Assembly (NCBI GenBank): GCA_030386875.1
Contig: CM059576.1
Span: 65,905,581 to 65,969,580, forward strand
Length of the DNA stretch: 64,000 nt
Source: Morinoia aosen
Lineage: Eukaryota; Arthropoda; Malacostraca; Amphipoda; Talitridae
Direction: 5' to 3'
Position 1 is the first letter of the stretch, and each line of letters starts with the position of its first letter. Positions 4,631-64,000 of the stretch are shown here, in pieces. The notes beneath the pieces were generated by a model. The model made no database searches and was not told the origin of the DNA. It was given only the letters and a program-made list of their open reading frames with translations. The position numbers and the translations under genes were made by a program.

Positions 4631-5146
4631 AGCGTGAAAATTCTCACAATTGAATCTTAGTAAAACTAGTTTTGTTGGGCTTCTGCCTATTCGACCGTGG
4701 GTCGCGTTTATCCGGGTGCGCCCCGTTTGGCGAGTATTTTTGATGTTCACCTCCAAACTACTGAAATATGCTTGAAATAAATATTTAAATGTGGATTTCT
4801 CCTAATTTTCATTCCTGGAAAGGTTAGAGGTTAAGTTCAGGCATTGAAAAATCTCGATGAAATTTCAAATTCCACAAGAAGCGAAAGCATTCATAATTTG
4901 TTTTCGATTTTATTCATTCATCTCATATTGGGAAAATTTATTTTCCAAGTGTTTTAATTGATTTTTCTATCCAACGGTAACTAATTCATTTTCTAGTAGA
5001 GTTAAACGATCACGAGAGAAATGTTCCGTAGGACAACATGCCACCTCTCATTGTAGATGGTATTTGCATTATTTTCACTTCCTATGTTCTTTTACTGCAT
5101 CAATCAGTTCTTTGATGTTTTTTGTCAATATATTCATTAAAATTTT
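4631..5146. other. No recognisable gene
   Basis: AT-rich spacer between two minisatellites. Nothing recognised. Confidence 0.4.
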
Positions 5147-6347
5147 GGTGCTGGTGTAGGTACGGAGCTACATCCCTGGACCTACACCACCACCATAACA
5201 CCACCACCGTACCTACACCACCACCGTACCTACACCAGCACCGTACCTACACGAGCACCGTACCTACACGAGCACCGTACCTACACCAGCACCGTACCTA
5301 CACCAGCACCGTACCTACACGAGCACCGTACCTACACGAGCACCGTACCTACACGAGCACCGTACCTACACGAGCACCGTACCTACACGAGCACCGTACC
5401 TACACGAGCACCGTACCTACACGAGCACCGTACCTACACGAGCACCGTCCCTACACGAGCACCGTCCCTACACGAGCACCGTACCTACACGAGCACCGTA
5501 CCTACACGAGCACCGTACCTACACGACCACCGTACCTACACCAGCACCGTACCTACACCAGCACCGTACCTACACGAGCACCGTACCTACACGAGCACCG
5601 TACCTACACGAGCACCGTACCTACACGAGCACCGTACCTACACGAGCACCGTACCTACACGAGCACCGTACCTACACGAGCACCGTACCTACACGAGCAC
5701 CGTACCTACACGAGCACCGTACCTACACGAGCACCGTACCTACACGAGCACCGTACCTACACGAGCACCGTACCTACACGAGCACCGTACCTACACGAGC
5801 ACCGTACCTACACGAGCACCGTACCTACACGAGCACCGTACCTACACGAGCACCGTACCTACACGAGCACCGTACCTACACGAGCACCGTACCTACACGA
5901 GCACCGTCCCTACACGAGCACCGTCCCTACACGAGCACCGTACCTACACGAGGACCGTACCTACACGAGCACCGTACCTACACGAGCACCGTACCTACAC
6001 GAGCACCGTACCTACACGAGCACCGTACCTACACGAGCACCGTACCTACACGAGCACCGTACCTACACGAGCACCGTACCTACACGAGCACCGTACCTAC
6101 ACGAGCACCGTACCTACACGAGCACCGTACCTACACGAGCACCGTACCTACACGAGCACCGTACCTAAACGAGCACCGTACCTACACGAGCACCGTACCT
6201 ACACGAGCACCGTACCTACACGAGCACCGTACCTACACGAGCACCGTACCTACACGAGCACCGTACCTACACGAGCACCGTACCTACACGAGCACCGTAC
6301 CTACACGAGCACCGTACCTACACGAGCACCGTACCTTCACCAGCACC
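5147..6347. repeat. 17-bp minisatellite bounded by inverted termini
   Basis: About 67 head-to-tail copies of a 17-bp unit (accgtacctacacgagc) fill roughly 5180-6340. Variants are scattered: caccagc, cacgacc, ccgtccc, one gaggacc, one ctaaacg. The first 19 bases (5147-5165) are an inverted copy of the unit end, and 6329-6347 is its reverse complement with one mismatch, so the whole array sits between short inverted termini. Because 17 is not divisible by 3, the array reads open with a 17-residue period (three units); the resulting 348-codon frame is an artefact. Confidence 0.9.
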
Positions 6348-6710
6348 ATAACAACAAATACCACGACGTAACAATAAGAACAAAACGGTAATGTATTGAT
6401 ATTTACATTTATGTAAATGTAAGAAGCGATATAGCATCAACAGTGGAAGTCATCATGTTGTTGTTCAGTGGAATTGAAAAGTAAAGTGGAAATTCCTTCC
6501 TTTTAATTCCAACGACTGACCATAAAAATAAATCAGCCAGGCTTAAAACATGGGTTGATTGTTTTGACTAATTTTGTGTGAATATTACAGAATATATTTA
6601 TTTCTTCGATGAAAAAAAAATTTAGTGCCTCCCAAAGTTTAGAAATACAGAATAATCGATATAACAAAACAATGTCAAGTTATTACTTTTTCTTCTCAAA
6701 TCAATATACG
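6348..6710. other. No recognisable gene
   Basis: AT-rich spacer between two minisatellites with no open frame of interest. Confidence 0.4.
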
Positions 6711-9234: not shown

Positions 9235-9590
9235 ATTAGTCATTAGTTTTAGCCTCCCTACCCAGCAACAAATGCGATCCAAAGAGAGGAAGGAGGAAGG
9301 CACCATTTAGTATGGAGTTAAGGAAACGCGGAATCTACTCAGAAAGGCATAGAAACAGTAAGTTGGGAAGGAAGATTATGAAACAAGATCAAAGTTGAAG
9401 GAGACGGTAGTAGGTGCTGAAAAACAGGACAGCAGTGAACCGAAAAAAGGTGGTTCTTAACATAACAAAAACATTTAATTTCAACAAAAAGAAGGCCTAC
9501 CTAACTTTCAGCTCGGGCCCTCACATTGTCCCCCTGGGAGCGCTAGTTCCCATAGATACAATAATTGTATCCCCATCAGGGGGTTGTGCT
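9235..9590 (+). repeat. Dispersed repeat family, copy 1
   Basis: About 350 bp, starting near ttagttttagcctccctacc and ending after a 'ccccctgggagcgctagttcccatagata' type segment and a gggg tract. Related copies, all in the same direction, lie near 19848, 24118, 27085, 27640 (partial), 39225 (split) and 43253. The family has no recognised protein and no clear inverted ends; a SINE or short non-autonomous element is the simplest reading. Confidence 0.75.
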
Positions 9591-20515: not shown

Positions 20516-22612
20516 CTAACCTTCACCATGTTTGCTGGCTAGGTGAAGTTTGGGATTACCCCTTCGAGCAGAAGAAAAGTTACATAATTCACACCTGAAC
20601 AGCTGACCTTCACCATGTTTGCTGGCTAGGTGAAGTTTAAGATTACCCCTTCGAGCGGAAGAATAGTTACATAATTCACAATTGAACAGCTGACCTTCAC
20701 CATGTTTGCTGGCTAGGTGAAGTTTAAGATTACCCCTTCGAGCAGAAGAAAAGTTACATAATTCACACTTGAACAGCTGACCTTCACCATGTTTGCTGGC
20801 TAGGTGAAGTTTGAGCTTACTGTTTAGAGCAGAGGAATAATTACATAATTCACACTTGAACAGCTGACCCTCACCATGTTTGCTGGCTAGGTGACGTTTA
20901 AGATTACGTCTATGAGCAGAGTAATATTCACAAAATTCACACTTGAACAGCTGACCTTCACCATGTTTGCTGGCTAGGTGACGTTTAAGATTAACCCTAT
21001 TAGCAGAGAAATATTCGCACAATTCGCAGTTGAACAGCTGACCTTTACCATGTTTGTTGGCTAGGTGCAGTTCAACATTCCTCTTTCGAGCCGAGGAATA
21101 GTCACATGATTCACACTTGAACAGCTGACCTTCACCATGTTTGCTGGCTAGGTGAAGTTTAAGATTACTCTTACGAGCGGAAGAATAGTTACATAATTCA
21201 CACTTGAACAGCTGACCTTCACCATGTTTGCTGGCTAGGTGAATTTTAATTTCACCCCTATGAGCAGAGAAATATTCACACAATTCGCACTTGAACAGCT
21301 GACCTTCACCATGTTTGCTGGCTAGGTGACGTTTAAGATTAACCCTATGAGCAGAGAAATATTCGCACAATTCGCACTTGAACAGCTGACCTTCACCATG
21401 TTTGCTGGCTAGATGAAGTTTAAGACTACCTTTATGGGCAGAGGAATATTCACAAAATTCACACTTGAACAGCTGACCTTCACCATGTTTGCTGGCGAGG
21501 TGAAGTTTAACATTACTCTTTTGAGCGGAAGAATAGTTACATAATTCACACTTGAACAGCTGACCTTCACCATGTTTGCTGGCTAGGTGACGTTTAAGAT
21601 TACCCATACCAGCAGAGAAATATTCACACAATTCGCACTTGAACAGCTGACCTTCACCATGTTTGCTGGCTAGGTGATGTTTAAGATTACTCTTTCGAGC
21701 GGAAGAATAGTTACATGATTCACACTTGAACAGCAGACCTTTACCATGTTTGCAGGCTAGGAGCCATTTAGCATAATCCTTACAAGTAGAGAAATAGTTA
21801 CAGAACTCAGATTTGAACAGTTGTTCTTTCCTATCTTTGCGAGCTTGGTATGGTTCACGTTCGTTTCTAAAAGCAGAGTCATTCACGTTACGCCTGTAAA
21901 ATCGACTTTGAACATGTCTGCTTATTTGAGGTCTTATTTTGCGTTTACCAGACAAACACTGCGTCAAGTTTCCTTCATTTGCTGAAGAATATTCGCATAC
22001 TTCACACTTGTACATTATACTATTGTTTAATGCACCTTTTTTAGGTGAATCAGAACTGGACTTGACGACAAAACAAGAGTTACATAGATCACATTTGCGA
22101 TCTTCCTGACCATGTTTATTACGTGGCTGTTCCCCCGTCATTTTCACACCTGGATATTGGTTACCCTCGGGTAGACCTTCGTACCGGCTGTCATTGTCAT
22201 GCTGCTCCACTACATGCCGCTTCAAAATACTTATGTCCATAGTGGAGTAATCACACAACCCACAATCGAAGTAACATCCTAATTTGTGCCTGACACGAAG
22301 GTGCAGCTCCATAAAGTCCCTCCTCCCAGTGATGTAATCACAATGTTCACACAGTAAGGGCCGTGACATGAGTCTGTCAGCAAGTGCGGCCTCAACACCA
22401 CTGCCGCTACTTGACACATCTGATGGTAACGAGTCAGCGCTCCCTTGAGATGCTGCAGCTGGTCCCTGATGAACAGCACTCGTGATGCAAGCACCAGAGC
22501 TGCCTTCCCTCAACTGGTCCTCTGCTTCTGCGTGCCCTGAACGTGCCTCGGTGCAGTCATAGTCTACTTCCCTCTTGAAAGTAACTGCATGAGAGCCTGA
22601 ACTTGAACTGGC
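20516..22612 (-). CDS. C2H2 zinc-finger protein, main finger exon
   Basis: Starts at an acceptor (cttcctcacag, exon from 22612, phase 0), so the protein reads in from upstream exons. The first about 60 residues are Ser-rich. Two ordinary C2H2 fingers follow (CEHCDYITGRRDFMELH and CGLCDYSTMDISILKRH). Then come three degenerate fingers that have lost ligands. Finally there are 14 regular fingers in 29-residue (87-bp) units of the form C-x2-C-x12-H-x4-H with the linker ASKHGEGQLFK. Spacer and scaffold are almost invariant while the helix positions (ARKSNLK, AHRVNLK, AQKSNVK and others) vary. That is typical of DNA-binding poly-finger proteins acting in the nucleus. The frame ends at TAG 20516. 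No gene name is recognised. Confidence 0.85.
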   Translation of the reverse strand, partial: ASSSSGSHAVTFKREVDYDCTEARSGHAEAEDQLREGSSGACITSAVHQGPAAASQGSADSLPSDVSSSGSGVEAALADRLMSRPLLCEHCDYITGRRDFMELHLRVRHKLGCYFDCGLCDYSTMDISILKRHVVEQHDNDSRYEGLPEGNQYPGVKMTGEQPRNKHGQEDRKCDLCNSCFVVKSSSDSPKKGALNNSIMYKCEVCEYSSANEGNLTQCLSGKRKIRPQISRHVQSRFYRRNVNDSAFRNEREPYQARKDRKEQLFKSEFCNYFSTCKDYAKWLLACKHGKGLLFKCESCNYSSARKSNLKHHLASKHGEGQLFKCELCEYFSAGMGNLKRHLASKHGEGQLFKCELCNYSSAQKSNVKLHLASKHGEGQLFKCEFCEYSSAHKGSLKLHLASKHGEGQLFKCELCEYFSAHRVNLKRHLASKHGEGQLFKCELCEYFSAHRGEIKIHLASKHGEGQLFKCELCNYSSARKSNLKLHLASKHGEGQLFKCESCDYSSARKRNVELHLANKHGKGQLFNCELCEYFSANRVNLKRHLASKHGEGQLFKCEFCEYYSAHRRNLKRHLASKHGEGQLFKCELCNYSSALNSKLKLHLASKHGEGQLFKCELCNFSSARRGNLKLHLASKHGEGQLFNCELCNYSSARRGNLKLHLASKHGEGQLFRCELCNFSSARRGNPKLHLASKHGEG

Positions 22613-23157
22613 CTGTGAGGAAGAACTTTACTCGATTATTACTGGCAAGTGTTCTCGGAAAAAGAACACATTATACGAAAAATTGCAATTAGAAGCAAAT
22701 ATGCACTTGTAACCATGTACTTTAGAGACGAAGTTGTGCTCTTGAACACATGTTCTTACTTTAATCTTGAGCAAATGCGCTCAACTGTTCAAAACAAAAC
22801 AAAAAATTTATGAATATAATACAGGAAGCAAAAAATAAAGAACACACAAAAGAAATTTGAAAAGCACATTCTATCTTCCCAGCCGGTTAATACTTGAATA
22901 TAAAGCAAAAGTTTAACGAAGTATTCATGCAATCGAAAATTACAAAACAAGACTCAATACAATACCGACAGTCAAAGATAGTCATTCTACGTGGTAGAAC
23001 AATTTTTGAAAATAAGGTGTATTACACTAACCACCAATAAGCAATCAAATAGGCAATAAATATCAATTTAACAGAATTGAAACTCGAGAATAATGGAGTG
23101 TGCAGTGAAATTATTTTCTGGAACCAGAGTAAAACATCGCTTAACAGCTGATGAGAT
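22613..23157. other. Intron sequence, nothing recognised
   Basis: AT-rich intron start of the zinc-finger gene; no element termini or domain seen. Confidence 0.45.
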
Positions 23158-55169: not shown

Positions 55170-56404
55170 TGTTAGGAATGCTTTTATGTCATTGTGGAGG
55201 ATTGGCCTGATATGTTCCTGTATTGTTCATGTGCCTGCCACCATATTCATTACCCCTTGTTTCTTTTTGTTTTAGATTTCTTATGCTAAATCCTATAAGC
55301 TCTTCTGTTCCTAGTGTCATCTCTTGCCTTTTTCTATGCACCTGCTTGAGACGCTAATCCTAAGATCCACTGCTTGACCTGCCACCTTGAATCATCCTGC
55401 CATATTTTGAGCCTGGTTCTTCCTTTCCTGGTTGCTCCTTTAGGGTAAGTCAGAGTATGCATGCTCATTTGACCTTTGTGAACTAAGATTGCTTAAATGT
55501 ATTTCAGTGTGCCTTGTGCTTCTTGTTTACTTACTTTACTGTCCAATACCTGCATATAGTGCTAATACTATATTTCAGCTTTATTTGTTGTATCTCTATC
55601 ATTAGTTTTATGTTCAATATCCATCATTTTTTGCTTGTGCTTCAGTTCTTTTGCCCCTGTGTGCTGCTCTGCTTTTGTGTTAAATACTGTTTCCTCAACT
55701 TTTTTCCTCAGCAGCTTCTGCTTCTTGTGGCTAGCTGAGATGCTTATGACCCGTGTTTCTCCTTTTAGAGCAGCGAGTCTGGGACTCTTGCCACTGGCCC
55801 GACTCAGAGCTACGTTGAGCAGCCAGATTGGGTAATGTACCCACCGGCAGTTTGTGACAGGATCCTCCACCATCTGATTCCCTTCTATGTAGCAGCACAA
55901 GTTCTTGGAACATTATTTGCAAACTTGATTCATTCCAGTTTAGACCCCTTTATTGATTTATGTACCATTTGTTCAACCTTGCTTGCCTAATTGTATTGTG
56001 CCAGCTTGTTGTTTGCCTCTTATGCCTTAGACATCTGTGTATTTATATATGTGCTTAGGTATAGTCTGTCCGTCTTTTGGGCTGTAATTCTTCCTTCCCT
56101 ATCTAACCATGCTAACCCCTTTGACCAAACCAATTGTCAGTTACAGCCAATGGATTCATTGTATTTGTGATTGTTCCAGTATATGTAGTGTGTTCATGAA
56201 AGTTTAATTTATACCCCACTGAATGAGTTAGTCTGGAATTCCCCCTCTTGAGTTTCTCATATTCAGTCTAAGCTCTCCCCCCTTGCCTGTAGCTCCCATC
56301 ATTTTAGTATTTTCTTCTGCCACTTCCACTTGAGAAGTGGAATAGCGAGTCCTGCCAGTCTCCTACTATAAGGGCCTTACCTGGTCAACAGTTATCCCCC
56401 AACA
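55170..56404 (+). repeat. Candidate 5' LTR of the gypsy-type element
   Basis: The 3' edge is placed at cccccaaca (56404) because a primer-binding-site-like tggtgcccagacccgggaac follows six bases later. The 5' edge is a guess: TGTTAGG at 55170 would give inverted TGTT...AACA ends and an LTR of about 1.2 kb. No second copy is inside the window, so the LTR cannot be confirmed. Short open frames within it (55514-55922) have no motif. Confidence 0.35.
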
Positions 56405-56430: not shown

Positions 56431-56671
56431 AAAAAAAAATGTTCATATATACCTATTGATTAGCCTAAATCCATTGGCTGAGCTGCTGGTCTCTCCCATT
56501 TCCAACTGTTATTATACCCAGGTAATTGTCATTTCTAGTGAATTGATAATATTATTAACGGGAGCGGAGGAGTCTGTAAACGTCTATCTTGTGAGCATAG
56601 CTCCCATTGAATAATTTAAGTTGCAATTGCATTGTGTTTGCTTGGATTTGTCTTTTTGTTGGCTCAGCAAA

Positions 56672-58495
56672 ATGAATTCAGCATTAGATGCACTTGCTAC
56701 CAATGGCAGCTCTGCAAGGGCAGCTTTGGGGTTGGCTTTACCCGCTGCTGGACAGGCTGGAGGTTTTGTCTCTGTGGCGCCTGCTTCATCGCATCAAGGG
56801 ACTGAGCCTGCCTTATCTCAGTTGCTGGGACCTCCTTGCATGACTGATGTAACAATTAAACCATTGACTTTCAAATCCATTCTTGCACCAACATCTGGTG
56901 CTGCAGCTGGTGGTGAGGCCATTAGCCAAGCTGACAATGACCAAACAGATGTGGTTCTGGAGCTCTGCAGCCATGTGGAGCGTATTATGCAGCAAATGGA
57001 GTCTGGCAAGGCTGAGGCTCTGTCTTCTCGTGCTCGAAAGGCCATCTCACGAATGAAAGGGAAAATGATTCTTTTCGCCAGTTCCGCTGAGGATGAGCTT
57101 AGACACCTCTCAGCTTCAGGCCATCAGAGGGATGATTGTGACTCATCTGAAGTGGAGCCGCTATCACCGCGTATTGCGAGCGATGATCATAACTCGTCGG
57201 AAGTGGAGCCTGTGTCTGAGAGTGATTCTGATAGTTATTGTCCCTCACTGGGTTCAAAGCCAGTTAAGTTTCTGCTTAAAAGTGGAGGCCAGAGGAACAG
57301 GTTATTGCCAAATATTGCTTCTGCTGGTGCTTCTCTTGAAGAACGCTTTATACATGCTTTGGAATGGCTGGATACCCGTGTTGTCCCAGCTCCTGAGCCC
57401 TTTGACCCTGCAAGTGGGCAATCTTTCCCCTCTTTCCTGGAATCGTTTGAAGAGTACTGCCAACACACTTTTCGTGGAAGAGATAGGTCATGTGTTTCAG
57501 AACTTGGCCGTCATCTGAGAGGAAACATGCACGAGGCTTTCCTGGCACACCGAGCTCAAGCAGACTCATACTCTGCAATTAAGAAGAAGCTGTTGGCTTG
57601 GTTTGGAGAGTCAAAGGCCAAGCACACTGCTGGGGGTAGAGCTATGTTTGCCCAGGCATCATTGCAAGCCAAAGAGTCAATCAGGCTCTATGCATCACGT
57701 CTGAAAAACCTCTTTAAACTAGCCTATCCAAGAAAATCGACTGAACACAGCAAGACGCTGCAGGACAAGTTCTTCAGCACAATTCCAAGAAAATACAGGA
57801 TCCAAGTTCGGAGTGCTCTCTCTGTGTCCAAGACCCTCGAGGGCAGAAGCCTGGGATGGTCTCGCATTGTGACATTAGTTGGTGCCCTTGAGGAGGCCCT
57901 TTCAGAGCCAGATGTTGTTGAGCTTGCTTCACCAGCTGCTCTTAATGTTGTGGATCTCTGGCATTATCAAGATGTTTCTGCAATGCATGATGCAGCTACC
58001 CAGTGTGGCCCATCAGTTGATTTTCAACCATCATGTAGTTATGTTGTGCAGCCAAATCAAAGTTGGAGTGCAAGACAAGCTACAGTCAGGGACAGAGGAA
58101 TTCCACGGTTTGAGAATCTGTCAACCACCGAGCAGGAGTTATCTCGCACCTGCCACTACTGTGGTCGCCTGGGGCACACCCAACGTGTCTGTCGTCGCCG
58201 TCTTGGACTCTGTCTGGCTTGTGGATCCAGAGACCATTACCTTGATCAATGTCAAGCTCGTTCTCCCCGTCGCAGTTTTGTGCGTCGAGTCAGCGCTGGC
58301 GATGACAGAGTTGACAGAACTCTGCGTTGGGACGAGTCAGCACGCGCACGTTCTTCCCAGCCAAGGCGGTACCGCAGTCAGGCAGATAATCGTGTGACCG
58401 ATGCAATTCCTGTGGATAATGTTGAAACTCAGGAGAACCAGTTCTCATTAAACCGGCTTGCTCCGAGGACAAGGGGGCAACCTCGGAGCTATTAG
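56672..58495 (+). CDS. Retrotransposon gag (capsid and two zinc knuckles)
   Basis: 607 codons from the first in-frame ATG (MNSALDALATNGSS); the frame itself is open from 56621. An N-terminal acidic/Ser-rich region is followed by a capsid-like segment (about residues 235-400; FPSFLESFEEYC and KKKLLAWFGESKAK) and two CCHC knuckles near the C-terminus (CHYCGRLGHTQRVC, CLACGSRDHYLDQC). The product would build the cytoplasmic particle and package the element RNA. It ends at TAG 58493-58495, overlapping the pol frame by about 68 bases; pol lies in the -1 frame. Fully open, no lesion seen. Confidence 0.85.
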   Translation: MNSALDALATNGSSARAALGLALPAAGQAGGFVSVAPASSHQGTEPALSQLLGPPCMTDVTIKPLTFKSILAPTSGAAAGGEAISQADNDQTDVVLELCSHVERIMQQMESGKAEALSSRARKAISRMKGKMILFASSAEDELRHLSASGHQRDDCDSSEVEPLSPRIASDDHNSSEVEPVSESDSDSYCPSLGSKPVKFLLKSGGQRNRLLPNIASAGASLEERFIHALEWLDTRVVPAPEPFDPASGQSFPSFLESFEEYCQHTFRGRDRSCVSELGRHLRGNMHEAFLAHRAQADSYSAIKKKLLAWFGESKAKHTAGGRAMFAQASLQAKESIRLYASRLKNLFKLAYPRKSTEHSKTLQDKFFSTIPRKYRIQVRSALSVSKTLEGRSLGWSRIVTLVGALEEALSEPDVVELASPAALNVVDLWHYQDVSAMHDAATQCGPSVDFQPSCSYVVQPNQSWSARQATVRDRGIPRFENLSTTEQELSRTCHYCGRLGHTQRVCRRRLGLCLACGSRDHYLDQCQARSPRRSFVRRVSAGDDRVDRTLRWDESARARSSQPRRYRSQADNRVTDAIPVDNVETQENQFSLNRLAPRTRGQPRSY

Positions 58496-59964
58496 ATCAG
58501 ACCCCCACGCCCGCAAACTTGCCTGATGAGCTCAGTTTTCAGGAGAGGACTTGTTGCTCTGATGCTGGTGGACTAGTCGATGCTGCAGAGACACGGTGCG
58601 ATGACCCCGCTGGGCCTTTTCAACCAGTAGTTGCTGAGACTGATAACTTTGTTCCACCTCTTGCTGTCAATGTTGCTTCTCTTGAGCCGGCTGAGCTACT
58701 CATTCTCCAAGTTGACCTTGAAGGCCGTAAACTGTGTGCTCTTATTGACTCAGGGGCTTCTGCCTCTCTTATCCGGTCCAGGTGCCTTCCTGTTGGTATT
58801 TTTCCCCAGGATGAGTCTTTGAGGATTGTGGGACTTGGAGGAGGTGTCAGTGTATTGGGTAGTGTCTGTCTTCAAGTTTCTTATCCTGGGTTGACCTTGA
58901 AATCATCCCAGTTTCTGGTTGTCGATGATGAGGCTATCAAGTATGATGTTATTCTGGGTGTGGACTTTTTGACTATTAATAAGTTAGTTGTTGATTTTTG
59001 TAGACAAGCATTGAAGCAATCTTTAGCTGTGGGCTTTGTTGAAGTTTATCTTGCCTTGAATAACACCCTAGACCAAGTGATTTACAGAAATATTCCTGTG
59101 TATGCTCAGGAAGATGTCAAGCTTCAGACCGGTACTTTGTGTTCAGTGCCAGTTACCGGTGCAGCAGAGTCATCCGCTGACTTGTATTATGATGGTTTCA
59201 TTGGAAAACCCGCGCGTGTGTTTGGTGTGGAAGGTGTGATTGGCATAGAAGGTGGAATTGGATCTGTGCTTGTGACCAGAGATGCTCTTGGTACCCATTC
59301 TAGAGACACTATACAGAAGGGAATGCAAGTGGGTACGGTCTCTTCTGTTGTAGACTTGCCTGCGGAAGTTGACCCTGTTGGTGACTCATGGAGTTTGGCT
59401 AGATTAAAGAAAGAATTTCCTTTAACTGGATTGTCTGAGTGTGAAGTTTGCATGGTACATGACATGATGTTGCACCACAAGGGAGTATTGAGCTGTGATG
59501 AGTCAGATGTTGGTCGCATTGGTGCTACTGCACAACGAATTGAATTACATGACAGCACTCCAATTCGTCAAAAGCCTCGTCGCTTTCCTCAGCCTATTGC
59601 AGAGGAAATTGAGAGACAGTGTGTTGACTTGAAGTCACTGGATATCATTGAAAACAGCAACAGCCCATGGTCCTCACCTGTGGTGCCTATAAGAAAGAAA
59701 GATGGTACCATCCGTTTATGCATTGACTACCGCAAATTGAACTCTGTCACTAAACCAGACAGGTTTCCGATGCCTAATGTCACTGATCTTGTATTCAGCT
59801 GGCATGGCATGAAGTTCTTCACTACCCTGGACCTTGTCAAGGGCTACTATCAGATCCCCCTTGAACATTCAAGTAAAGAACTCACTGCTTTTTCAACTCC
59901 CTCCAATCATTATCAGTTCAAGCGTCTCAGTTTTGGCCTTAGAAATGCTCCAGCAGCTTTTTAA
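58430..59964 (+). CDS. pol part 1: protease 1 and reverse transcriptase N-terminal half
   Basis: Open in the -1 frame relative to gag from about 58430, with no obvious own start, so expression would need frameshifting. Retropepsin 1: ALIDSGASASLI holds the catalytic Asp (codon at 58747) and YDVILGVDFL the second conserved motif. Reverse transcriptase from about 59560: WSSPVVPIRKKDGTIRLCID, the motif A region FFTTLDLVKGYYQIPL, and FGLRNAPAAF. It stops at TAA 59962-59964, immediately after that motif, in the middle of the RT domain. RT continues in other frames after the break. Confidence 0.85.
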
Positions 59965-60346
59965 CAAGAAATGCAGACCATCCTGAATGGGTTCCTAATA
60001 AAGAAGTAATTGTATATATCGATGACATCCTCATTATGTCTCAATCATTTGAACGTTATTTGCAGCTCGCTGGCCAGGTACTGAGTGCTTTCAATGAACA
60101 TGGAGTGAAGGTGAAGCCCAATAAGTGTTGCTGGTTTCAGAGTAGTGTACCATTTCTGGGTCATGTTGTCAGTGAGGCAGGCTTACAGAAAGCTCCTGAG
60201 TATGTGGAAAAGGTCTTGAACTTCCCACAGCCTGAAACTGTGCATCACCTAAGGCAATTTTTGGGCCTGGTAAACTTCCAGAGGAAGTTCTTGCCACACT
60301 GTTCTGAGGTGGCCCTAAGAACCATAAGTTAAATTGGACAGAATCA
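59965..60346 (+). pseudogene. pol part 2: remainder of the reverse transcriptase (broken)
   Basis: The YIDD catalytic motif is visible near 60014-60025, in a frame shifted relative to the part before it. An open stretch at 60036-60332 carries the thumb/connection region (PFLGHVVSEAGL, LRQFLGLVNFQRKFLP). The frame changes again near 60305, where it no longer joins the RNase H frame. So this copy has at least three separate breaks within 350 bases of the RT, while everything on both sides is open. Confidence 0.8.
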
Positions 60347-63142
60347 ATGGCAGTTGCTTTTGTTAAGTTGAAGGAGATGATGGCCCATGACATCTTACTT
60401 GCTTTCCCTGATTACAGCCCTGGTGCCTGCAAGCCTGAATTGTTTGTTGATGCATCTGGTAGTGGTGCTGGTGCATGTCTGACACAGGTCCAGAGTGGTG
60501 CAAGGAAGGTTATTGCCTATAATTCTATGACATTTTCTGCCCCTCAACGTAAATACTCCACGATTGACAGAGAGCTAGCTGCAATAAGATGGGGTATTAA
60601 GTGTTTCCGTCCATTCTTGTTTGGAATTCTTTTCATTTTGTTCACGGACCACAGACCATTGATCTATATGCACAACATGTCCAGTCAGAATTCACGTATT
60701 GCTCGTACCCTTCAGGAACTTGCTGAGTTTGATTTTGAATTACGATATTGTAAAGGAAAAGATAACTTTGTGGCTGATATTCTCTCACGACTGCCTGGGG
60801 CCATAGATGTACTTGAGTCGTCCACTCCAGATCCGGCATATCTTCCTTCTGGTTTGAAGCTGATTTGTAAAGTTGATGGAGGAGGTGACTGCTTGGTTGA
60901 AAGCCTCATGCATGTATTGGAGCATCATCAAGCTCATGTCAACCCTGAGATTGCCTTACCAGGGTCCACCACTGCCTTGAGAAAGTTGCTGGTGGATGAG
61001 CTGTTAGCAAATGGAGCTAAATACAATTTGAAAATTCCTCCTACTGTGAGACGTGAATTGTGTATGATGCGCCAACCAGGACAACTTCTTATGGAGAGTG
61101 CATTGTTGGCTTTCACTGTTCTTTTTGATCTAGAGGTTTGGGTGCACTGTGGGATGGAGATGCCTATTATTCATTCTTTATCTCCTGTTTCTACACCGGA
61201 TCCATGTAAGCGTGTTCATGTACAGTTGCTTGCTGGTTGTCATTATAACCCTGTCTGTGAAGGGAAGTTGTATGCACCCCCACCCCTGGAATCACTGCCT
61301 GAGCCTCTGCTGCGTGATGATTTTAATTCTTCTGGAGAGTTAAGTGATGGGGAAGACACAGATGTTGTGGCTCAACTAGAAGCATTGAATGTCATGTGTT
61401 CCTGTCCTAAATCTATTTGTACCTTTGCCACTGTTCAATTTGGAGATGCTACCTACTGTTCATTACTGGATACGGGTGCCCAAGTCAGTATGCTGTCTCG
61501 GGATGTGTGGAATGCCTTGCCTGCTGCTGTTAAGTCCTCCACTGAGATTGACAATGAGGGTTTTGAGCTTCATGGAGTTGGAGGTCATCCTTGTAAGGTT
61601 GATTTTGTTGTTCACTTGAGATTTAAGTTTATGGGACAGGACATTGAGTGTGATTTTCCGTTTGCTGTAGTACCCAGACAGGTTTCGCCAGTATGTGTTC
61701 TGTTAGGGGCCAATTTCCTTAAGAGATTTCAAGCATGCTTGGATTTTTCTCAGGGACTGGTTAGTATACATCTTGGGGGCTCAAGGTTCTCATTTTGCAC
61801 TAGACTCAAGGAACAACCTGTTACAGGGATGTACTTCTGTTTCCAGCATGTCTTGGTGTCTGAGCCTCCAGTGTTTCAGTTGGCCAGTGAAGAAAGTTTG
61901 CGGTTGCTTCAGTCTCAGGATGAAGCATTGAGTCTTCTGAAATCCAAGGTTGTAGAAGGTATTGATCCTAAGCTTTGGAACAGTCCAGGCTTGGGGAGGT
62001 TTGGTAGATTCTCAGACCGGCTGACTGTCTTACATGACTTGTTGTGGTTCAAAGGTCCTCTCAAATCAGTCCCTGTTGTGACTTTTAAATTCTTGGTTGA
62101 GGTTATGGTTACCATTCACTTCCAAATGGCCCATTTAGGGAAACACAAGTTAATTGATTCTACTTTGAAACAGGTTTGGCATCCTGACATTTATTCAATA
62201 GCTAATGATATTTGCACCTCTTGCATCAAATGCCAATTCTGTAAGGTCTCTTCGCAACCTGTGAGTCCACCAGTCCTGAAAATAGTTACCACTTTGCTTT
62301 TTGAGTTAGTCTCAGTTGATCTTGTTGACTTCCCTCTAACAGCACGAGGCCATTGCTCGATCTTGATGGTTGTGGACCACCATTCTAAATGGTTGATGGC
62401 TGTGCCATTGAAAGACAAAAGGGGAACAACAGTTTCTAATGCTTTTGAACACCGCGTTCTTCCTGCTCTTGTGCGCTTGCCTGATCGACTTTTGTCGGAT
62501 AATGGACCGGAATTTAGGAGTGCTGTCTTTAATGATGTGTTGGAAAAATTTAGTATTGACCATACCTACTCTACTCCTTATTGCCCAGCCTCCAATGGAG
62601 GTGTTGAGAGAGTTAATCGCACTATAAGTGAGATTTTGCGCACTCTGGGTGACAAAGCTGGTGAGTGGGATCTGATTTTGCCCCGAGCAGTAATGATCTA
62701 TAACACTACCATACACCGGGAGATTGGCATGTCTCCCTCAGAATACATAATGTCTAAGGCTCACAATGTGACACAGAAGCCTCTGCTTGACAACCGTGAA
62801 AAAAAGTGTTGGTCTGATGGACATCCTCGATTTCTCCCATTTAAGCTCGGACAGCTTGTGTTGCGCAGGATACCCTATCAAAGTAAAACCTGTGTGAGTA
62901 AATTGCTCCCTAAATTTGATGGTCCCTTCAAAGTAATAAATGTTCAAAATAATGGGGTGACCTATGTCATTGAATTGATTGGCGGTAAGAATTCTGGTCT
63001 TACTAAAGCGGTACATCACAGACAGCTCAAAAGATTTTGTACGCCCCCAAACTACTCGAGTGAAAGAGCTGGATTTGATGTAAATCAAGCTCCTCCATCT
63101 GGTGGGTCTTTTGAGCTAGATTATAGGCGTGGCCCCAATTAG
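60347..63142 (+). CDS. pol part 3: RNase H, OTU-like protease, protease 2, integrase
   Basis: 931 open codons; the ATG is only the first Met after the last break. RNase H (residues about 30-150): ELFVDASGSGAG, DRELAAI, FTDHRPL. OTU-like cysteine protease (about 170-305): VDGGGDCLVESL with the candidate nucleophile Cys182, LRKLLVDELL, and VQLLAGCHYNPV with the candidate His299. Retropepsin 2 (about 350-470): SLLDTGAQVSML with Asp375 and VCVLLGANFL. Integrase (about 585-800): an HHCC zinc site (HFQMAHLGKH...CTSCIKC), then the D-D-E core (VSVDLVDF, LSDNGPEF, NGGVERVNRT), and a C-terminal region with PKFDGPFKVI. All catalytic residues named are present. It ends at TAG 63140. Confidence 0.9.
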   Translation: MAVAFVKLKEMMAHDILLAFPDYSPGACKPELFVDASGSGAGACLTQVQSGARKVIAYNSMTFSAPQRKYSTIDRELAAIRWGIKCFRPFLFGILFILFTDHRPLIYMHNMSSQNSRIARTLQELAEFDFELRYCKGKDNFVADILSRLPGAIDVLESSTPDPAYLPSGLKLICKVDGGGDCLVESLMHVLEHHQAHVNPEIALPGSTTALRKLLVDELLANGAKYNLKIPPTVRRELCMMRQPGQLLMESALLAFTVLFDLEVWVHCGMEMPIIHSLSPVSTPDPCKRVHVQLLAGCHYNPVCEGKLYAPPPLESLPEPLLRDDFNSSGELSDGEDTDVVAQLEALNVMCSCPKSICTFATVQFGDATYCSLLDTGAQVSMLSRDVWNALPAAVKSSTEIDNEGFELHGVGGHPCKVDFVVHLRFKFMGQDIECDFPFAVVPRQVSPVCVLLGANFLKRFQACLDFSQGLVSIHLGGSRFSFCTRLKEQPVTGMYFCFQHVLVSEPPVFQLASEESLRLLQSQDEALSLLKSKVVEGIDPKLWNSPGLGRFGRFSDRLTVLHDLLWFKGPLKSVPVVTFKFLVEVMVTIHFQMAHLGKHKLIDSTLKQVWHPDIYSIANDICTSCIKCQFCKVSSQPVSPPVLKIVTTLLFELVSVDLVDFPLTARGHCSILMVVDHHSKWLMAVPLKDKRGTTVSNAFEHRVLPALVRLPDRLLSDNGPEFRSAVFNDVLEKFSIDHTYSTPYCPASNGGVERVNRTISEILRTLGDKAGEWDLILPRAVMIYNTTIHREIGMSPSEYIMSKAHNVTQKPLLDNREKKCWSDGHPRFLPFKLGQLVLRRIPYQSKTCVSKLLPKFDGPFKVINVQNNGVTYVIELIGGKNSGLTKAVHHRQLKRFCTPPNYSSERAGFDVNQAPPSGGSFELDYRRGPN

Positions 63143-64000
63143 TTTTTTTGTTTGTCTGTATTATCCAGCATGCATCAGTCTGAATTTGTTCTGTTTTCTC
63201 CAGTCTTTTGAGTGATTTTATATGTTAAGTGTAGAGTGTAAAGTTTAAAAGTGTTTAAATGTGTGTTTTTAAATGTTCATTGGTTGATTTGTGTTCTTGA
63301 TTTTGCTGTGTTTTTGTGTCTGAATTGTTTCTTAATGCACTGTCTTTCTTTCATTTCCAGTCACTCAGATTTACAGTAAAACCAGTGTAATATTATTTAT
63401 TGGCAGAGCTATTCCTTCACCTTATAGAACCAAGTGTTGATCTGGTGAGTGTTGCTTATTGTACAGTTTGCTTTGCTTGTATATATTTTTTGTTGCTTTA
63501 GGCTAAGATTTACTTTATGTTGAGCATGATGTTTTCTTTTGGCATATTGGTTCTTTTATTTCTTTTTGTTGAAAGATCAAGTTTTTCAGTTTGCTAGATT
63601 TCAAGACCATTTTTTGTAATAATATTTTTTCTGAGTTACTCATTTGAGTTTTGTTGTTGAATGATTTTATTTGAGTTTAATTTCATTCATATTCATTTCA
63701 TAGTCCATTTTTTCAGTTGCTTTGTTTCATTTTTAGTTAGTGCATTTACTTTATTTAGCATGAATTCATTTTCAGCATGGTTTATTTAGTTCTGCTTCTT
63801 ACTTTATTTTGAAGTTCAATTTTGAGGAATCCCAAAGGAATGGGTATGGTTTATTTTCTTTTTTCCTGCATTTTTAATTTTGTTTTATTTCTGTTTTCAG
63901 GGCTTTTTTTGGTTGTACTGGCTTCTGATTTATCTTCACTGTTTCTGAGCCCTGTCACTTGTTGTTGCATGTACAATCATCTGTTCCACAATAAACTATC
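63143..64000 (+). other. T-rich non-coding tail of the gypsy-type element
   Basis: No open frame and no copy of the candidate 5' LTR. A purine-rich cccaaaggaatgggtatgg at about 63832-63850 is a possible polypurine tract, but what follows does not obviously match the left side. The 3' LTR is probably beyond the window. Confidence 0.5.

What the first reader, a model, noticed from the sequence alone, without database searches (positions are those of the whole stretch)
60860..61270. OTU-type cysteine protease domain inside a gypsy-type pol
Between RNase H and integrase, where Ty3/gypsy elements normally have only a short spacer, lie about 135 residues with the features of an OTU (ovarian tumour) deubiquitinase: DGGGDC with candidate Cys182, a conserved L-R-x-L-V middle segment, and a GCHYNPV His motif 117 residues later. 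Motifs, order and spacing fit the family. If active it could remove ubiquitin from element or host proteins, or act as an extra polyprotein protease; that role is inference. I do not know of a described gypsy lineage with this arrangement.
Basis: partly seen in the sequence, partly recalled or inferred. Interest (0 to 1): 0.88.

Follow-up and report, generated by a model that had tools for sequence, protein, structure and literature searches.

The report
Retrotransposon carrying altered OTU-type protease domain
A group of retrotransposons carries, inside its main enzyme chain, a domain shaped like a ubiquitin-removing enzyme whose key cysteine is usually a serine, next to a second copy of the viral-type protease, which raises the question of whether the domain cuts or only binds ubiquitin.

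Summary

The interpretation needs a change. Among 114 pols the nucleophile is Ser in 100, Cys in 8, Thr in 3, Ala in 2, gap in 1; His is kept in 114 and Asn/Asp at His+2 in 114; the Asp of DGxxC is Gly in 112. On an RT-RH tree Cys rows lie scattered among Ser rows, so the window's Cys is probably derived. Activity is open: reports on Ser-type OTUs conflict. I read it as a conserved, ubiquitin-engaging OTU domain of pol, catalysis unproven. New variant of a known kind.

The parts
55193..56036 (+). 5' LTR of the window copy, as far as seen (at least this stretch)
   Evidence: blastn: L009 418-1261 matches the 3' LTR stretch of L010 at 96.0%; L009 position + 54775 = window position
56615..58495 (+). 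gag frame (stop to stop); two weak zinc-knuckle matches
   Evidence: Pfam zf-CCHC_5 E 0.033, zf-CCHC E 0.19, both under cut-off
58705..58974 (+). PR1, first aspartyl protease domain (DSGA) of pol
   Evidence: Pfam RVP E 1.2e-5, residues 94-183 of frame 58426-59964
59689..60167 (+). reverse transcriptase, in two frames in this copy (frame break near 59950)
   Evidence: Pfam RVT_1 E 3.7e-14 and 1.5e-10; frames 58426-59964 and 59943-60332
60437..60730 (+). RNase H domain
   Evidence: Pfam RT_RNaseH E 1.9e-25, residues 44-141 of frame 60308-63142
60782..61285 (+). OTU-fold domain; Cys codon 60890-60892, His codon 61241-61243, Asn (His+2) codon 61247-61249
61397..61783 (+). PR2, second retropepsin-like domain (DTGA at 61469-61480)
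   Evidence: Pfam gag-asp_proteas E 1.2e-4, under its cut-off; profile A2 to ASPRV1 E 8e-9; model pLDDT 79.8, Foldseek best hit human DDI1 RVP domain E 4.1e-6
62099..62248 (+). integrase zinc-binding domain (H2C2)
   Evidence: Pfam Integrase_H2C2 E 7e-6
62303..62587 (+). integrase core (rve); a GPF motif follows downstream in the frame
   Evidence: Pfam rve E 9.3e-11; GPF read in the translation
63122..64000 (.). insertion of about 982 bases that interrupts the 3' part of pol in this copy and runs past the window end
   Evidence: blastn L009 against L010: alignment breaks at L009 8346 and resumes at 9329

Best explanation
The element is a Ty3/gypsy LTR retrotransposon of a lineage whose pol order is PR1-RT-RNaseH-OTU-PR2-integrase. 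Shown here: the inserted domain has the OTU fold, it is at the same place in every pol examined, its active-site His is invariant and Asn (rarely Asp) is kept at His+2, and its nucleophile position is held as Ser (sometimes Cys or Thr, twice Ala). Inferred: the domain was acquired once, before the lineage radiated, with Ser as the lineage's ancestral state; the window's family changed Ser to Cys. Inferred, mechanism: the domain is kept because it engages ubiquitin or a ubiquitin-like protein through the OTU substrate cleft, as a part of the pol polyprotein that travels with integrase or is freed by the retropepsins. It would shield element proteins from ubiquitin-dependent turnover or tether them to ubiquitinated host factors, either by slow hydrolysis or by binding alone.
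For: Fold and homology. Same place in the genome: 19 fetched copies with open pol frames plus the window copy all have OTU then PR2; one search found 150 scored copies of 607 candidates by the OTU segment alone. Wider: 94 further pols, all with OTU and PR2. Active-site constraint: His 114 of 114; Asn 111 and Asp 3 at His+2; nucleophile Ser 100, Cys 8, Thr 3, Ala 2, gap 1. All four TCN Ser codons occur among the loci read in this genome (22 TCA, 9 TCG, 8 TCC, 7 TCT), so Ser is kept through silent change. In 62 rows under 80% alike, His is 62 of 62 and the first Gly of the GGG loop 61 of 61. OTU dN/dS 0.076 and 0.058 in two pairs. Cys rows are scattered among Ser rows on the RT-RH tree: 4 rows, at least 3 changes.
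Against: No ubiquitin contact was tested. The DGxxC Asp is Gly in 112 of 114. Two pols have Ala at the nucleophile position. dS is near saturation, so the dN/dS values are rough, and in four of the six pairs the OTU value could not be computed. The tree is unrooted and of the quick kind, so Ser as ancestral state is a parsimony reading. Both successful protein searches used an OTU+PR2 query, so pols with one of the two are under-sampled.
Confidence: 0.5

Rival explanations
1. The domain is a catalytically dead OTU used only as a structural or scaffolding module of pol, for example as a spacer that places PR2 and integrase; the active-site residues remain for fold stability.
For: In PMC4654579 (passages read) the Ser-type OTU proteins CG3251 and Otu cleaved no ubiquitin chains, and CG3251 showed no significant chain binding. 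The Asp of DGxxC is Gly in 112 of 114, and two pols have Ala.
Against: His and His+2 Asn/Asp kept in 114 of 114, and Ser/Thr/Cys in 111 of the 113 that can be read; a pure spacer needs neither. PMC12263153 (passages) detects deubiquitinase activity of Otu purified from S2 cells.
Confidence: 0.3
2. One reading: in the window's family the domain is a working cysteine deubiquitinase, regained from a Ser ancestor.
For: Of 16 family copies 14 keep Cys (TGC), one has an Asn codon and one was not read. On the tree Cys also arises in P0036 and in P0086/P0088, apart from the window's family; P0058 has Cys too but was not on the tree. Cys, His and Asn are all present.
Against: The Asp of DGxxC is missing and no activity was measured. 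In PMC4654579 Cys alone was not enough in two other Ser-type OTUs.
Confidence: 0.15
3. The domain is a serine (or Cys/Thr) hydrolase of OTU fold that cuts the element's own polyprotein.
For: Nucleophile-capable residue in 111 of 113 readable rows, with His and Asn or Asp.
Against: Two retropepsin domains are already there; no cleavage sites were looked for; the OTU-PR2 linker is poorly conserved.
Confidence: 0.04
4. The motif is a chance resemblance and the domain is not an OTU.
For: The window sequence alone matches no Pfam OTU, NCBIfam or PDB entry.
Against: weakly.
Confidence: 0.01

Closest known systems
OTUD3 and OTUD5 OTU domains (PDB 4bou, 3pfy)
   Same: Fold, and His motif with Asp or Asn at His+2
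   Different: 23% and 16% identity; Ser for Cys in most of the lineage and Gly for the Asp of DGxxC; carried in a retrotransposon pol
Drosophila Otu and CG3251 (Ser-type OTU proteins, PMC4654579, passages)
   Same: Ser in place of the catalytic Cys, His kept
   Different: Host genes; CG3251 keeps the Asp (D37) three residues before its Ser (S40), where this lineage has Gly
Ginger1 DNA transposons (PMC2836005, passages)
   Same: Gypsy-type integrase and an OTU domain in one mobile-element protein
   Different: OTU lies after the integrase, with TIRs; here OTU lies before the integrase inside an RT-bearing pol with LTRs
Helentron/Helitron OTU proteins (PMC6431247, PMC4067079, passages)
   Same: Mobile element that carries an OTU-like domain
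   Different: Rolling-circle DNA transposons; PMC4067079 states that all residues required for function are conserved there
Non-LTR element L069 of the same genome
   Same: Retroelement of the same genome with an OTU domain (ORF1, PF02338 E 3e-7)
   Different: OTU at the end of ORF1 with GDGHC and HYS motifs; the gypsy OTU profiles score this one copy at -0.9 and -0.2 bits, so probably a separate acquisition

Membership tests
OTU superfamily (fold) | OTU fold | tested here: met
Pfam PF02338 OTU | Score over the curated cut-off | tested here: not met
   Window: no match; 12 of 16 A1 members match, best E 0.0012, bit scores not shown
OTU cysteine deubiquitinases | Catalytic Cys | tested here: inconclusive
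   Met in the window and 14 of 16 family copies; not met in most of the lineage, Ser 100 of 114
OTU cysteine deubiquitinases | Catalytic His, and Asn/Asp at His+2 | tested here: met
   114 of 114 each
OTU cysteine deubiquitinases | Asp three residues before the Cys (DGxxC) | tested here: not met
   Gly 112, Ser 1, gap 1 of 114
OTU cysteine deubiquitinases | Ubiquitin or UBL cleavage | not testable with these tools
   Needs an assay
Ty3/gypsy LTR retrotransposons | LTRs and gag, then pol with PR, RT, RH, then integrase with GPY/F | tested here: met
   LTR pairs of 572-914 bases, 99.1-100% alike, in 9 of 20 stretches; Pfam order; GPF read by eye in translations
Ty3/gypsy LTR retrotransposons | Position within the gypsy RT tree | not tested
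   No named reference elements were placed on the tree
Ginger1 transposons | TIRs and OTU after integrase (PMC2836005) | tested here: not met
   RT, RH and LTRs present; OTU before integrase

The most novel reading that the evidence does not exclude
An old and widespread retrotransposon clade encodes a true serine-nucleophile OTU hydrolase (Ser-His-Asn) that acts on ubiquitin or a ubiquitin-like protein, paired with a second retropepsin as a dedicated module in front of integrase; Cys forms such as the window's are occasional switches of the nucleophile.
Probability: 0.2. Interest if true: 0.88.

Novelty: new variant of a known kind. Interest (0 to 1): 0.64.

Why it matters
OTU domains are known in DNA transposons and Helitrons, but an OTU inside an LTR-retrotransposon pol, with a second retropepsin beside it, was not found in the six paper searches aimed at it. 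The lineage offers many diverged Ser-type OTUs with an otherwise conserved active site, a natural set for the disputed question whether a Ser-type OTU can be a deubiquitinase, and a new handle on how retrotransposons deal with host ubiquitination.

Tried and rejected
Viral contigs: no relative by P0001 or A1. Phage tblastn: only chance-level hits, best E 3. First protein search with the window frame, residues 150-350: none at E <= 1 among 2159 candidates; the later query L023 worked. Idea that PR2 is specially Ddi1-like and so ubiquitin-directed: rejected, because PR1 matches Ddi1 better (E 2.9e-11) than PR2 does (6e-5). Idea that the OTU came from the non-LTR element of the same genome: not supported, -0.9 and -0.2 bits for the one copy tested. 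No clear terminal inverted repeat was seen at the ends of the insertion in the window copy. Nearest gypsy elements without OTU in this genome: one RNase H query, not answered, not repeated. The regex for the active site failed on 3 of 64 loci (L036, L045, L061); the 64 leave out L001, L002, L003 and L005, which duplicate longer stretches, and about 86 of the 150 scored places were not fetched. Tree rows dropped for short RT: 9 of 101. The first tree script stopped with an error and was run again. Paper searches were about Ser-type OTUs and 92 about non-LTR elements, not about OTU in gypsy.

Full report
What is there. The window is G000:C21:65905581-65969580 of a 1.99-Gb genome in 29 contigs, by size and content an animal's (inference). 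At 55.2-64 kb it holds a damaged copy of a Ty3/gypsy-type LTR retrotransposon. Gag is in frame 56615-58495. Pol is split over frames 58426-59964, 59943-60332 and 60308-63142, while sister copies such as L010 have one open pol of 1821 residues that overlaps gag. An insertion of about 982 bases breaks the 3' part of pol after 63121. Pfam finds PR, RT, RNase H, then a weak second aspartyl protease, H2C2 and rve.

Same place in other copies. The OTU segment alone finds 150 scored places of 607 candidates in this genome, 131 of them without a stop by my count of the rows. I fetched 20 long stretches: window family A (4), B (4), C (3), D (7), E (2); B to E are about 55%, 37%, 38-43% and 35-36% identical to the window's OTU. 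Nine of the 20 show LTR pairs of 572-914 bases at 99.1-100% identity, which suggests recent activity; five show only 74-81 bases of a second LTR at the end of the stretch, and six none, probably because the 10-kb stretch ends before it. Five open pols scanned with Pfam give PR1, RT, RNase H, a gap where OTU sits, H2C2 and rve; four of the five have two aspartyl-protease stretches, L014 one. A PR2 model built from seven of these loci hits behind OTU in 75 of 75 pols and 114 of 114 (PR1 or PR2 model). PR1 is seen in 93 of 114. In the other 21 the OTU starts at residue 2-684, and PR1 elsewhere ends 603-660 residues before OTU, so these are probably cut short at the N end. PR1 and PR2 profiles are related (hhalign 99.8%). 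The PR2 motif is D[TSC]G[AS] in 113 of 114 and DTEA in one. The PR2 model has pLDDT 79.8 and its best PDB fold hit is the DDI1 retropepsin domain, E 4.1e-6.

Spread. Two protein searches gave 55 proteins among 7560 candidates and 50 among 2618, 39 of the latter new, 94 in all. Few carry a name; P0023 is labelled Hirondellea gigas, an amphipod (recalled). Both queries covered OTU and PR2, so pols with only one are under-sampled; one search used OTU alone, and the 20 long stretches fetched from it all have PR2.

The nucleophile. In 114 pols: Ser 100, Cys 8, Thr 3, Ala 2, gap 1; His 114; His+2 Asn 111, Asp 3; position -3 Gly 112, Ser 1, gap 1. The eight Cys are the window, L010, L011, L012 (one family), P0036, P0058, P0086 and P0088. 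In this genome 61 of 64 loci could be read: 14 TGC and one AAC, all in family A, and 46 Ser codons of all four TCN kinds in the other families. OTUD3 (Asp) and OTUD5 (Asn) carry an acid or amide at His+2 in the alignments, so that part of the active site is kept. On the RT-RH tree (92 rows of 101, quick method) four Cys rows need three changes, and L010 pairs with Ser-bearing P0049 at SH-aLRT 96. Ser is thus most simply the lineage's older state and Cys a recurrent change; the tree is unrooted.

Constraint. OTU dN/dS is 0.076 and 0.058 for two pairs, with dS 2.0 and 2.5; in four other pairs dS was saturated. The OTU-PR2 linker is less conserved than OTU in all six pairs. Among 62 rows less than 80% alike, the columns without any variation are a Gly of the GGG loop, the Arg of L-R, and the His; the nucleophile column ranks 13 of 168.

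How it may work. Ser-type OTUs are disputed. PMC4654579 (passages) found CG3251 and Otu inactive. PMC12263153 (passages) reports deubiquitinase activity of Otu purified from S2 cells and cites earlier work for it. Because the His, the Asn or Asp, and nearly always a Ser/Thr/Cys are kept together over deep divergence, I favour a domain whose substrate cleft is in use, for ubiquitin or a relative, as hydrolase or receptor. That step is inference.

Against what is known. OTU domains occur at the C end of Ginger1 transposases and in Helitrons (PMC2836005, PMC6431247, PMC4067079; passages). The rotifer and ostracod LTR-element papers do not contain the term OTU in their main text (PMC5408684, PMC7998251). 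Six paper searches aimed at it listed no paper whose title, abstract start or passages read show an OTU in an LTR-retrotransposon pol; most listed papers were not opened, one search listed 12 of 454, and Repbase was not at hand.

Noticed in passing
L069 (G000:C2:8241300-8246100), ORF1 363-2786, ORF2 from 2787: A non-LTR retrotransposon of the same genome carries an OTU domain with the usual motif (GDGHC ... HYS, PF02338 E 3e-7) at the end of ORF1, followed by an endonuclease-RT ORF2. One search lists 150 scored of 1842 candidate OTU places in this genome, many in frames of about 806 residues like this one; only this one was read.
   Followed up: partly
61397-61783: Second retropepsin domain between OTU and integrase, related to but distinct from PR1; whether it pairs with PR1 or with itself is open.
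   Followed up: partly
L017, L020, L023, L028: C-terminal end of pol: Long extension after the integrase that ends near a [V/I]-Q-x-x-x-L-E-Y-K motif in these four and in P0023; L010 of the window's family lacks it.
   Followed up: no
20516-22627 (-): Open frame of 703 residues made mostly of similar C2H2-type zinc-finger repeats.
   Followed up: no
5116-6391: Tandem repeat open in all three forward frames.
   Followed up: no
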